A stretch of 64,000 nt of DNA from positions 1 through 64,000 of the forward strand of contig JAQXBM010000041.1 of assembly GCA_029252405.1 (NCBI GenBank). Direction: 5' to 3'. The notes beneath the pieces were generated by a model. It did not search any database. It was not told the DNA's origin and worked only from the letters and a program-made list of their open reading frames with translations. The DNA is from Crocinitomicaceae bacterium (lineage in GTDB: Bacteria; Bacteroidota; Bacteroidia; Flavobacteriales_D; Crocinitomicaceae). Positions 24,031 through 27,551 of the stretch are shown in pieces; the first letter of the stretch is position 1; every line of letters begins with the position of its first letter. Both the position numbers and the translations under genes were made by a program.

Positions 24031-24609
24031 TCAAATAAGTGCGTGCACTCTTTCCCGTAAAGTAGGCAAAACATCATGAGCAAACCACGGATTCTTTTTC
24101 ATCCAAATCGCGTTTCTTGGCGATGGGTGAGGTAATACAAAGTTCTTCGGTAAGTATTCTGAGAAATGAAGCACAGTTTCCGTCAAGTTTTTCTTTGCTT
24201 CTGATTTGAGGTAATATTTCTGAGCATACACGCCGATCAACAAAACCAATTCCAATTCTGGGAGCTCATTCAGCAGTGCTTCGTGCCACAATGGAGCGCA
24301 TTCTTTTCGTGGAGGGAGATCACCTGACTTTCCTTTTCCAGGATAGCAAAATCCCATGGGTACGATTCCAAAAAGGTCTGGATTGTAGAATTGCTCATTC
24401 GTGACATTCAACCAAGCGCGTAGGTTTTTCCCGCTTTGATCATCCCAAGGGATTCCCGAAGCATGGACTTTCGTTCCAGGAGCTTGGCCGATAATTAAGA
24501 TTTTACTTTTCTTAGAAACTGAAACTACAGGACGCGGACCGAGAGGCAAGTGTTTCTCGCAAACTTTACAGTTGTTAATATCAATCAGAAGTTTATCGAA
24601 AGAAGTCAT
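24031..24609 (-). CDS. Uracil-DNA glycosylase family protein
   Basis: CKVCEKHLPLGPRPVV...ILIIGQAPGTKVHASGIPWDDQSGKNLRAWL...GFCYPGKG...LPHPSPRNAIWMKKNPWF. ATG at 24609 directly follows the upstream response regulator stop. Confidence 0.88.
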   Translation of the reverse strand: MTSFDKLLIDINNCKVCEKHLPLGPRPVVSVSKKSKILIIGQAPGTKVHASGIPWDDQSGKNLRAWLNVTNEQFYNPDLFGIVPMGFCYPGKGKSGDLPPRKECAPLWHEALLNELPELELVLLIGVYAQKYYLKSEAKKNLTETVLHFSEYLPKNFVLPHPSPRNAIWMKKNPWFAHDVLPTLRERVHALI

Positions 24610-24610
24610 C

Positions 24611-25009
24611 TTAGTTCTGATCGAACTCGCCAATGATTTCTTGCAATTTATCTTTAGAAAGCGGTTTTGGGTTAAACGAAAGATTTGGGTACAACTTTGT
24701 CGTTCGTTCTTTGTCGAAATCTTCATCAGAAGAAGAAAGGATGACCACATTCGTGTTTTCCTTGTCCTCGTCAGTGAGGTAGGCATTCAAAATCCCTAGA
24801 AACTCGAATCCATCCATTACGGGCATGTTGAGATCGAGAAAAATCAATTTTGGTTTTTCTTCCGCATCCACGAAGAAATCGAAGCCAACTTTTCCGTTTT
24901 CAGAGAGGTGTACATTCACTTCGGGGTACAGTTTTTCAATCAATCTTCTGTGAAAATGATTGGTCGCGTCGTTATCGTCAATAATCAAGATGTTGGTCAG
25001 TTTCCCCAT
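24611..25009 (-). CDS. Single-domain response regulator (CheY-like)
   Basis: LIIDDNDATNHFHRRLI...PKLIFLDLNMPVMDGFEFLG...VVILSSSDEDFDKE...FNPKPLSKDKL. Confidence 0.93.
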   Translation of the reverse strand: MGKLTNILIIDDNDATNHFHRRLIEKLYPEVNVHLSENGKVGFDFFVDAEEKPKLIFLDLNMPVMDGFEFLGILNAYLTDEDKENTNVVILSSSDEDFDKERTTKLYPNLSFNPKPLSKDKLQEIIGEFDQN

Positions 25010-25011
25010 AA

Positions 25012-25842
25012 CTATGCGTTTGTGCCCGTTAAAGGTAAGATGATTTTAAAAGTTGAACCAACTCCAACTTCACTTTCTATCTCCAAGGTGCCTCCGTAAT
25101 TCTCTAATAATTTATTGATGATGTACATTCCAATTCCTGATCCAGAGCCATCGTTGGTAACGCGTTTGAACAATCCCAAGAGTTTTTCGCGGTTCTTTTC
25201 CAAATCAATACCGACACCATTGTCCTCGATGGAAATACAAATAGTTTGCTCGTCAAGTTTCTCTGTATGAACCTTAATTACACCCGGTTTTTCTGGATCC
25301 AAGTACAAGATGGCATTCGAAATCAGGTTTTGCAAAATGCTGCGAAGAGCGGATTTATAGTAAGGGAAATTATCGAACTCGGTGAAGTCGCAAATGAACA
25401 GCACTCCTTTTTTCTTAATCGTTGATCGCATTCCCGACAATATACTTTCCACCAAACTGTCCATGTTGATCGTCACGAGCAGATCGTCTTTGTCATTTCG
25501 CGCTTTCAGTGCTGAAGTCAGTTCTTTGATTACATTCATTGCCTCACGAACGGAGTATTTCAACCACTTTATGGAATCTTTCACATCCCCAGAAGGCTCT
25601 TCTAAATCCATTTCCAGCAGGTCGAGGTAGCCTGAAATATTGGCAAGTGGGGTTTTTAAATCGTGCGTCGCGACGTAGGTAAATTGCTCCAGTTCGTTGT
25701 TATAACCAATAACTTTTGAGGAATCCGGGTCGTTATCTTCAACTAAAGTGCGCAGCGTTTCATTCTCAAGCCGCAGGGATTGATTTTCAGAAACTAGTAC
25801 TTCCAGTTTCTCCAGTAGATGTTCTACATTATCCTTGCTCAT
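25012..25842 (-). CDS. Soluble sensor histidine kinase (coiled coil + HisKA + HATPase_c)
   Basis: N-terminal coiled coil; FTYVATHDLKTPLANISGYLDLLE; NLISNAILYL; DNGVGID; GSGIGMYIINKLLENYGG. No TM or PAS domain apparent. Confidence 0.93.
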   Translation of the reverse strand: MSKDNVEHLLEKLEVLVSENQSLRLENETLRTLVEDNDPDSSKVIGYNNELEQFTYVATHDLKTPLANISGYLDLLEMDLEEPSGDVKDSIKWLKYSVREAMNVIKELTSALKARNDKDDLLVTINMDSLVESILSGMRSTIKKKGVLFICDFTEFDNFPYYKSALRSILQNLISNAILYLDPEKPGVIKVHTEKLDEQTICISIEDNGVGIDLEKNREKLLGLFKRVTNDGSGSGIGMYIINKLLENYGGTLEIESEVGVGSTFKIILPLTGTNA

Positions 25843-26314
25843 TGTTGATTCGTTTCGCTAAATCTAGAAATGCATCTTCCACATTTTCTCCTGTTTTTGC
25901 ACTGGTTAAAAGATCGAAATCCGCATCAAAAGAGGGAGCGTTGCCTTCCAATAAATCCATTTTATTTCCGATAATCACTTTATTGACTTCAGGAAAGTAA
26001 GAATTCAAAACTTCCAGTTCTTTTATGATGGCGTGATACGTTTCTTCTCGTGTTGAGTCGAAAACCAAGAGAAACGCGTGTGTACCTCTCAAATAAGCAT
26101 CGTAAAGTTGTTCATTCATCAAATCGCCTGCAACATCCCAAATGAGCAGTTTGTAGGTCACATCTCCCAAAACAACCGATTTCTTAGAGATGTTTATTCC
26201 GATCGTCGACAAGTATTCTTCATTAAATATACTGTGCACGTATTGTTTGATCAGCGATGTTTTTCCAACGGATTCGTTTCCAAGAAGGACTATTTTTTTA
26301 CTTATTTCGCGCAT
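25829..26314 (-). CDS. Ras/Rab-like small GTPase
   Basis: P-loop GNESVGKTSLIKQ; G3 LLIWDVAGD; G4 IGNKMDL; G5 TSAKTGENVEDAFLDLAK; 161 aa stand-alone G domain. Confidence 0.92.
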   Translation of the reverse strand: MREISKKIVLLGNESVGKTSLIKQYVHSIFNEEYLSTIGINISKKSVVLGDVTYKLLIWDVAGDLMNEQLYDAYLRGTHAFLLVFDSTREETYHAIIKELEVLNSYFPEVNKVIIGNKMDLLEGNAPSFDADFDLLTSAKTGENVEDAFLDLAKRINNEQG

Positions 26315-27023
26315 TATCTGTAGAGGGAAAAAATGTCTTTTGTATGTGTTCGTTTACTTGCTCTGTCAATTCATTGTCGATCTCTTTGAATGAAAGTGAA
26401 CCAATTGATTCATCAGCAAGTTCCAAGCATTGATCGAAATAGAGAGATTTCATTTCCTTCGAGATGATTCCTTCTGTAATCAATGCAAAGTAAAATTGTT
26501 CAAAATTGAAGAGTAGGATGGTGTAGTCGCCATATTCGAGGCTTTCCAAATCGGAATCGCCATCGCCAAAAGCGGATTGAACGAATGACTTAATAGCCGT
26601 AAGCATGCTCGCAATCAGGTCGGGCTCGATGGTGTCTTCGTTTCCATATTCGCCAATGACTAATCCAGAATCTTTGTGAATGATAAAGACTTGTTCCAAT
26701 TGTCCGTTGGCTTCCTTCGTCTTGTTTTTCTTTAAGAAATCAAAAGAGAACAGTGCTTTTCGGCGTTTATTGATTTCTTCGTTAAGTCGTTCCATTTCAC
26801 TTCGGATAAACTTTCGAATCAGTTTGCCGACATGTGGACCGAGCATATCAACCACTTGATCCTTCGAATTGTTCAGAACTTTGACGAATTCATCTGGATC
26901 GTTTAGTTGTTTTTCGAGCACGTCAATTCGTTCAAGTAAACGCTCATTACGTTCCTTGTTCTCTTCACGATCATCGGCTAAAATGATTTTACGAAGCTCT
27001 TCGAATTGACTTTTGGTGTCCAT
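26298..27023 (-). CDS. Hypothetical protein: N-terminal coiled coil plus C-terminal possible roadblock/longin-like domain
   Basis: N-term FEELRKIILADDREENKERNERLLERIDVLEKQLNDPDEFVKVL; C-term VFIIHKDSGLVIGEYGNEDTIEPDLIASMLTAIKSFVQSAFG...YTILLFNFEQFYFALITEG, alternating strands and helix. Overlaps the GTPase gene by 17 nt. Confidence 0.75.
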   Translation of the reverse strand: MDTKSQFEELRKIILADDREENKERNERLLERIDVLEKQLNDPDEFVKVLNNSKDQVVDMLGPHVGKLIRKFIRSEMERLNEEINKRRKALFSFDFLKKNKTKEANGQLEQVFIIHKDSGLVIGEYGNEDTIEPDLIASMLTAIKSFVQSAFGDGDSDLESLEYGDYTILLFNFEQFYFALITEGIISKEMKSLYFDQCLELADESIGSLSFKEIDNELTEQVNEHIQKTFFPSTDNARNK

Positions 27024-27039
27024 TTAGATCTGCAGGTCT

Positions 27040-27399
27040 TTACGACTGCAATTTCTCACCGATTTGAACCAATAATTTTCCAAGAACCGCTCGGTCGGTT
27101 TTTTCATCTTGTAAACGATCCAATTCTTTCTGGATATCATCTTCAAGCTTCGAGAGTTGCTTGTCCGTCTTTTTTTCAAGATCATGAACGGCACTTTCAC
27201 GCTCGTTGCTCTCATCAACCAACTGATTTTGGAGATCGTCAAGGCGATCGTTGAGTGCTTTAAATCGATCTTCAAAGGTCTGAATGTCAGAGCCAAAAAT
27301 AAGCTCTTTGACCGCTTGAATTTTCATTTGGTCCTGATTCATTGGAGTCTCCTTTATTTCCTCGATCTCTTGAGGGTTTTTACCTTTTTGTTTCGCCAT
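27040..27399 (-). CDS. Coiled-coil hypothetical protein of the GTPase operon
   Basis: IQAVKELIFGSDIQTFEDRFKALNDRLDDLQNQLVDESNERESAVHDLEKKTDKQLSKLEDDIQKELDRLQDEKTDRAVLGKLLVQIGEKLQS. Confidence 0.8.
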   Translation of the reverse strand: MAKQKGKNPQEIEEIKETPMNQDQMKIQAVKELIFGSDIQTFEDRFKALNDRLDDLQNQLVDESNERESAVHDLEKKTDKQLSKLEDDIQKELDRLQDEKTDRAVLGKLLVQIGEKLQS

Positions 27400-27551
27400 A
27401 ATGCTAATATTTGTTCCTGTAGTGATGCATACGCATCGGCTTGATTAATGGTTTCAGATTCACACAAATATAGAAAATACCTGTCCATTAGATTAAATAC
27501 ATCAGAACGTGCAACTAAACGAGCCTGATTGATTAAATTTGCTGAACTCAT
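27354..27551 (-). CDS. Small (~65 aa) helical hypothetical protein, likely first gene of the GTPase operon
   Basis: Internal start MSSANLINQARLVARSDVFNLMDRYFLYLCESETINQADAYASLQEQILALWRNKKV...; the longer ORF start would run into the divergent ccsBA gene. Confidence 0.6.
   Translation of the reverse strand: MSSANLINQARLVARSDVFNLMDRYFLYLCESETINQADAYASLQEQILALWRNKKVKTLKRSRK
27534..27541 (+). promoter_or_regulatory. Bacteroidetes-type -7 element (TAAATTTG) for the CcsBA gene
   Basis: TAnnTTTG, 24 nt before the ATG at 27566. Confidence 0.4.

What the first reader, a model, noticed from the sequence alone, without database searches (positions are those of the whole stretch)
24611..27551. Six-gene Ras-like GTPase / two-component signalling operon
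Six minus-strand genes overlap or abut (overlaps of 46, 17 and 14 nt; gaps of 16 and 2 nt). They encode a ~65-aa helical protein, a 119-aa coiled-coil protein, a 241-aa coiled-coil plus possible roadblock/longin-like protein, a stand-alone Ras-like GTPase, a histidine kinase without TM or PAS domains, and a receiver-only response regulator. The sequence shows intact G1/G3/G4/G5 motifs, an intact HisKA His, and an intact receiver Asp. MglA/MglB-type polarity systems set a precedent for a bacterial Ras-like GTPase paired with a roadblock partner. Inference: the 241-aa protein may act as GAP/GEF or scaffold, and the GTPase cycle may feed the phosphorelay or cell organisation.
Basis: partly seen in the sequence, partly recalled or inferred. 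Interest (0 to 1): 0.85.

Follow-up and report, generated by a model that had tools for sequence, protein, structure and literature searches.

The report
Bacterial Rab-like GTPase–longin signalling operon
A bacterium carries a five-gene cassette in which a Rab-like molecular switch sits beside a partner whose predicted shape matches the "longin" regulators of human and yeast Rab switches, wired to a sensor kinase and its receiver; the family was predicted in 2014 but never tested, and the longin partner had been listed as unknown.

Summary
The operon is real, but has five genes, not six: the 65-aa ORF is promoter/leader DNA, broken by stops and indels in the nearest relative. The cassette runs coiled-coil protein, 241-aa protein, Ras/Rab-like GTPase, soluble histidine kinase, lone receiver. 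It matches the "Group 1 Rup" systems predicted from genomes in 2014 (PMC4316618), uncharacterised by experiment there. It is not an MglA/MglB system: G3 keeps its Asp, and no roadblock (PF03259) protein was found in 13 module-bearing genomes. The 241-aa protein belongs to that paper's "domain of unknown function" proteins; AlphaFold plus structure comparison give its C-terminal half a longin fold (Z about 11 to VAMP7, Fuzzy, Mon1-Ccz1, TRAPP). The GTPase's closest solved relatives are Rabs. GTPase and longin genes co-occur 11/11 in 395 sampled class genomes and are adjacent in 79/80 loci. Elsewhere a PAS-type domain with an invariant Gln follows the GTPase; in the Crocinitomicaceae clade, apparently once, it was replaced by this PAS-less kinase plus receiver. 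Best model: the longin protein is GEF or platform for the GTPase, whose state gates the kinase. Direct interaction and GEF/GAP activity are untested.

The parts
24611..25009 (-). single-domain receiver (response regulator), 132 aa
   Evidence: Pfam Response_reg 8.3e-13; orthologues at the same place in Fluviicola NORP8 and sister genus
25012..25842 (-). soluble histidine kinase, 276 aa, short N-terminal coiled coil, no PAS, no TM
   Evidence: HisKA and HATPase_c; catalytic motifs conserved; lacks the PAS-like domain of other Rup outputs
25829..26314 (-). Rup-family, Rab-like small GTPase, 161 aa, G3 WDVAGD
   Evidence: Pfam Ras 1.3e-32; Rab nearest solved relatives; motif counts
26298..27023 (-). 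241-aa protein: helical N-terminal half plus C-terminal longin-fold domain (residues about 104-235; about window 26316-26714)
   Evidence: AlphaFold and structure search; adjacent to GTPase in 79/80 loci
27040..27399 (-). 119-aa coiled-coil protein with conserved KIxAIKxxIFG motif
   Evidence: present upstream in 75/80 loci
27400..27551 (-). promoter and leader region, with TATATTTG box; not a 65-aa gene
   Evidence: frame broken in Fluviicola NORP8 while the TTTTTCTATATTTGTGTGA block is identical; promoter assignment is inference

Best explanation
The five genes form a Group 1 Rup small-GTPase signalling system in a soluble, two-component-output variant. Shown by sequence and comparison: a Rab-like GTPase, a coiled-coil protein and a 241-aa protein travel as one unit across Bacteroidota, with matching operons in a cyanobacterium and an alphaproteobacterium. 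Shown by predicted structure: the 241-aa protein ends in a longin domain. Inferred: the longin domain, probably as a dimer held by the helical region and/or the coiled-coil protein, binds the GTPase at its switches and sets its nucleotide state, more likely as GEF or platform than as GAP. Inferred: GTP-bound GTPase engages the adjacent histidine kinase and changes its autokinase or phosphatase activity, and the lone receiver carries the phosphoryl signal to targets encoded elsewhere. In most relatives the contact is probably the PAS-like domain with an invariant Gln that follows the GTPase gene. In the Crocinitomicaceae clade that domain was lost and a PAS-less kinase plus receiver took its place, so the contact there must be different.
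For: Co-occurrence: in 395 class genomes all 11 with a strong GTPase match also have the 241-aa family and vice versa, barring one marginal hit (naive p about 1e-21, ignoring phylogeny); in G176 the two genes are unlinked yet both present. Adjacency 79/80, coiled-coil gene 75/80, PAS-like domain 73/80. Same order in Nostoc and Mesorhizobium, with kinase or cyclase output. Longin fold, with weak Pfam Fuz_longin_1 matches in 7 of 37 members. Rabs are the nearest solved GTPases. PAS-less operons with HK and RR from six Crocinitomicaceae genomes plus L066 form one clade, support 89/55. Invariant Gln in 79/80 PAS-like domains, which have a PAS fold. The published Group 1 Rup description matches in all but one feature.
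Against: No direct evidence of binding, exchange or hydrolysis; no complex could be modelled. The full model has mean pLDDT 68, with the helical half below 60. Longin folds also serve in adaptors and SNAREs, so the fold does not prove GEF activity. The genome-wide Fuz_longin_1 search puts only 3 of 13 weak hits in the 241-aa family and none over the cut-off. The kinase could regulate the GTPase rather than the reverse.
Confidence: 0.6

Rival explanations
1. Reverse wiring: the histidine kinase is the sensor and the GTPase is the output. Kinase or phospho-receiver acts on the longin protein or GTPase, which then controls cell organisation, in the manner of conservons or of RomR acting on MglA.
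For: Conservons are read as kinase upstream of GTPase (PMC4316618); MglA works with the receiver protein RomR (same source); single-domain receivers often act by protein contact (general knowledge).
Against: Across the family the gene after the GTPase is swapped among kinase, lone PAS protein and cyclase, which fits an output position better; the window kinase has no sensor domain.
Confidence: 0.22
2. The longin protein is not a nucleotide-cycle regulator but a scaffold or effector that localises the GTPase; in relatives the TM/OmpA form anchors it to the cell wall.
For: OmpA and TM fusions; longin domains also work as adaptors, as in the AP and SNARE matches.
Against: Strict one-to-one co-occurrence and Rab-GEF longins among the best structural matches are equally or better explained by a regulator. 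The window form has no anchor, so anchoring cannot be its job here.
Confidence: 0.25
3. The C-terminal domain is a roadblock (MglB-like) GAP rather than a longin.
For: MglB structures are also matched (Z 9.6; Foldseek E 4e-4); the folds are related; long helices precede b1 and could stand in for the roadblock N-terminal helix.
Against: Alignments to roadblocks stop near residue 210 and leave out a3, while longins align through 234; no PF03259 match in 13 genomes or in 37 homologues.
Confidence: 0.1
4. Kinase and receiver are mere neighbours, unrelated to the GTPase unit.
For: In most relatives a different kind of output protein stands there; nothing tests contact.
Against: 14-nt overlap of GTPase and kinase genes; the same five-gene order in two genera, and a related kinase and receiver on the other side of the unit in L066; kinases are the commonest output family-wide (62 of 80).
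Confidence: 0.08

Closest known systems
Group 1 Rup systems (Wuichet and Sogaard-Andersen 2014, PMC4316618)
   Same: GTPase of the Ras-like kind without the G3 Gln; adjacent coiled-coil protein; adjacent protein with an unassigned conserved domain; adjacent signalling output (histidine kinase).
   Different: Here the unassigned-domain protein has no TM/OmpA anchor, the kinase lacks the N-terminal domain with the invariant Gln, and a separate receiver is added. The unassigned domain is here predicted to be a longin domain.
Mon1-Ccz1, BLOC-3, Fuzzy-Inturned and TRAPP longin complexes acting on Rabs
   Same: Longin domain partnered with a Rab-type GTPase; structural Z about 10-11 to these longin domains.
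   Different: One longin domain per chain, bacterial, no sequence-family membership over cut-off, no vesicle traffic; GEF activity untested.
MglA/MglB and RomR polarity system of Myxococcus
   Same: Small GTPase with a regulator of the related roadblock fold and a receiver-domain protein.
   Different: MglA family (Thr in G3) versus Rup (Asp kept); roadblock versus longin topology; PF03259 does not match; the receiver here is single-domain and encoded in the same operon.
Actinobacterial conservons (CvnA-D)
   Same: Operon of histidine kinase, GTPase, a roadblock/longin-class regulator and a small accessory protein.
   Different: MglA-type GTPase and MglB-type roadblock, membrane kinase, no receiver; an analogous rather than the same operon.

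Membership tests
Group 1 Rup system | Small single-domain GTPase with Ras-superfamily G1-G5 motifs | tested here: met
   Pfam Ras 1.3e-32; motifs conserved in 44 homologues
Group 1 Rup system | No catalytic Gln in G3 | tested here: met
   WDVAGD; Gln in 3 of 44 relatives
Group 1 Rup system | Adjacent gene for a cytoplasmic coiled-coil protein | tested here: met
   119-aa protein; family present in 75/80 loci
Group 1 Rup system | Adjacent protein with a conserved unassigned domain, often (not always) with TM and OmpA | tested here: met
   241-aa protein is homologous to the OmpA-fused forms; the window form itself lacks TM and OmpA
Group 1 Rup system | Adjacent signalling output protein (histidine kinase or c-di-GMP enzyme) | tested here: met
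   Histidine kinase
Group 1 Rup system | Output protein has an N-terminal region with an invariant Gln | tested here: not met
   Gln present in 79/80 PAS-like domains elsewhere; the window kinase has only a short coiled coil there, and one query found no copy elsewhere in the genome. So the window is filed as a variant lacking this published feature, not as a typical member
Group 1 Rup system | Placement within the published Group 1 tree | not tested
   The 71 published sequences were not retrieved; the Nostoc and Mesorhizobium operons give indirect support
MglA family | Thr in place of the conserved G3 Asp | tested here: not met
   Asp60 invariant, 44/44
MglA family | MglB/roadblock partner | tested here: not met
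   PF03259: no match in 13 module genomes while 3 of 14 control genomes ring
Longin domain (fold) | Topology b1-b2-a1-b3-b4-b5-a2-a3 | tested here: met
   DSSP order on the model; alignments to longins run through a3 (residues 104-234), those to roadblocks stop near 210. Prediction only
Fuz/Mon1/HPS1 longin sequence family (PF19036) | Score over the curated cut-off | tested here: not met
   7 of 37 members match weakly, best E 0.007; none over the cut-off in 20 genomes
Rab-GEF | Catalyses nucleotide exchange on its Rab | not testable with these tools
   Needs purified proteins

The most novel reading that the evidence does not exclude
Bacteria possess true longin-domain regulators that act as exchange factors for Rab-like GTPases, encoded as ready-made operon pairs; the longin/Rab partnership of eukaryotic membrane traffic would then have a bacterial counterpart used for two-component and second-messenger signalling.
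Probability: 0.35. Interest if true: 0.85.

Novelty: new variant of a known kind. Interest (0 to 1): 0.62.

Why it matters
Rup GTPases are the prokaryotic family proposed as the source of the eukaryotic Ras superfamily (PMC4316618), and none had been characterised by experiment in that paper. Longin domains are usually treated as eukaryotic or Asgard regulators related to roadblock domains (PMC3521125, PMC10933270), and Asgard GTPase genes do not generally lie in operons with their regulators, so pairs there are hard to assign. A bacterial operon that pairs one Rab-like GTPase with one longin-fold protein gives a defined two-protein test of whether longin GEF or platform activity exists outside membrane traffic. 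The modular swap of outputs (kinase, cyclase, lone PAS protein, kinase plus receiver) is a natural experiment on how the switch passes on its signal.

Tried and rejected
(1) Six-gene reading: rejected, the 65-aa ORF is broken in the nearest relative. (2) MglA/MglB membership: G3 Asp is retained and roadblock PF03259 is absent. (3) Sequence-level link of the longin domain to Fuz/Mon1: suggestive in 7/37 members, but a genome-wide search gave 13 sub-threshold hits of which only 3 are this family, so it is not claimed. (4) Homology of the coiled-coil protein with the N-terminus of the 241-aa protein: hhalign probability 4%, not supported. (5) A solved homologue of the 241-aa protein by sequence: none. 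(6) GTPase-only tree to place the PAS-less clade: unresolved; the concatenated tree was better. (8) Literature on a longin domain or on experiments with Group 1 Rup systems: none in the held library, which omits most subscription journals. (9) Gain or loss of the cassette: absent from most of the genus, and G008 has the same flanks without it, but neither mobility genes nor repeats were examined, so gain versus loss is open.

Full report
OBSERVATION. Pfam supports the GTPase (Ras, 1.3e-32), the kinase (HATPase_c 7.7e-22, HisKA 5.6e-9) and the receiver (8.3e-13); the 119- and 241-aa proteins have no family above cut-off. No member has a transmembrane segment by hydropathy. The 65-aa ORF is not a gene: in Fluviicola NORP8, whose kinase is 86% identical, the frame is interrupted by stops and indels, while a block containing TATATTTG is unchanged. 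From general knowledge TAnnTTTG is the Bacteroidota -7 promoter element, so this stretch is read as promoter and leader. The operon therefore has five genes.

DISTRIBUTION. The nearest named relative is Fluviicola sp. NORP8 (Crocinitomicaceae). Of 34 genomes of the genus, only the window genome and this one carry the unit. In G008 the flanking genes are contiguous without it, so the cassette is a discrete unit gained or lost as a whole. In 395 genomes of the class, the 11 with strong GTPase matches are the same 11 with clear matches to the 241-aa protein; one further genome has a marginal hit only. In G176 both are present on different contigs. Of 80 loci fetched from the genome collection with the 241-aa family, 79 have the GTPase next to it, 75 the coiled-coil gene, 73 a conserved PAS-like domain after the GTPase, and 62 a kinase. 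The same order occurs on a Nostoc plasmid and on a Mesorhizobium plasmid, the latter with an annotated OmpA family protein, Rab family GTPase and adenylate/guanylate cyclase.

WHAT IT IS. This is the Group 1 Rup system predicted in PMC4316618: a GTPase lacking the G3 glutamine, a coiled-coil protein, a protein with an unassigned domain often followed by TM and OmpA, and an output protein with an N-terminal invariant glutamine. All but the last feature are met here. The Ras Q61 position is Asp in the window and Gln in only 3 of 44 relatives. The nearest solved GTPases listed are all Rabs.

THE UNASSIGNED DOMAIN. AlphaFold with 37 natural homologues gives residues about 108-231 as b1-b2-a1-b3-b4-b5-a2-a3. 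Block pLDDT there is mostly about 80-94, dipping to 63 at residues 151-160; the N-terminal helices are of low confidence and the overall mean is 68. Foldseek's best hits are an AP sigma subunit, TRAPP, CPLANE Fuzzy and, lower, MglB; 47 are below E 0.001. VIA-align gives Z 11.6 to VAMP7, 11.3 to a CPLANE (Fuzzy-Inturned) chain, 11.2 to Mon1-Ccz1 and to a Lokiarchaeal longin, and 10.9 to a TRAPP subunit; roadblocks score 9.6-10.0 over fewer residues, stopping near 210. Helix a3 is what separates longin from roadblock, so longin is the better label, with the caveat that the two folds are related by permutation (PMC3521125; PMC10933270). Sequence support is weak. I found no earlier statement of this in the held literature.

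THE OUTPUT. The domain that usually follows the GTPase has a high-confidence PAS fold (pLDDT 93; PAS matches) that Pfam misses. Its Gln is present in 79 of 80, agreeing with the 2014 description. The window kinase lacks this domain, and one query found no copy elsewhere in the genome. Five further Crocinitomicaceae genomes (Fluviicola NORP8 and four of a sister genus) have the same gene order; in L174 the receiver frame is broken. L066 has a related kinase (49% identical) and a receiver upstream of the unit. A concatenated tree of 241-aa protein and GTPase groups all seven as one clade (89/55, in 88% of bootstraps), so one replacement is the simplest reading, though not proven.

MECHANISM. Shown: a conserved unit, intact GTPase motifs apart from the family's missing Gln, intact kinase and receiver residues, and a longin fold by prediction. 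Inferred: longin protein as GEF or dimeric platform; GTPase state gating the kinase; receiver as diffusible output. Because the Gln-bearing domain is missing, the 2014 suggestion that it may act on GTP hydrolysis in trans cannot apply here as it stands: either hydrolysis is slow and the cycle is set by exchange, or another part supplies the residue. Rivals are listed with confidences; they overlap with the main model, so the numbers are not meant to sum to one.

LIMITS. Genome searches were samples, and the 404 relatives rest on one peptide pattern. Many loci come from metagenome-assembled genomes. Gene calls in relatives came from a simple longest-ORF script. No complex was modelled. The co-occurrence p-value ignores phylogeny.

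Noticed in passing
L075, L082, L091, L115, L135, L144 (Flavobacteriaceae): Rup operons with two GTPase genes and a PAS-like protein between them, so the switch is duplicated next to a single longin gene.
   Followed up: partly
L064:6980-7894 (G124): A divergent GTPase whose G3 reads WTVPG (MglA-like Thr) followed by a PAS-like protein resembling the Rup output domain, next to a 1922-aa protein and without a longin gene.
   Followed up: no
L056 and L057 (G176): GTPase and longin genes are both present but on different contigs; the GTPase lies beside a gene that looks like succinyl-CoA ligase.
   Followed up: partly
L051:6274-7379 (G210): A second coiled-coil plus longin gene pair without a GTPase, in a genome that also has a GTPase-bearing operon.
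   Followed up: no
L174:8675-9051 (G1064): The receiver gene is split into two frames, either a pseudogene or an assembly error.
   Followed up: no
L183 (G008): Same flanking genes as the window (UDG-like gene next to the 1114-aa cytochrome c biogenesis-like gene) without the five-gene cassette.
   Followed up: yes
window 24031-24609: UDG-superfamily gene starting 1 nt after the receiver stop codon, possibly cotranscribed with the operon, though it is not part of the conserved unit elsewhere.
   Followed up: partly
L060, L061, L148-L159: Longin-family proteins of about 570-640 aa; L060 has a TM helix and a Pfam-detected OmpA domain, the envelope-anchored form of the system.
   Followed up: partly
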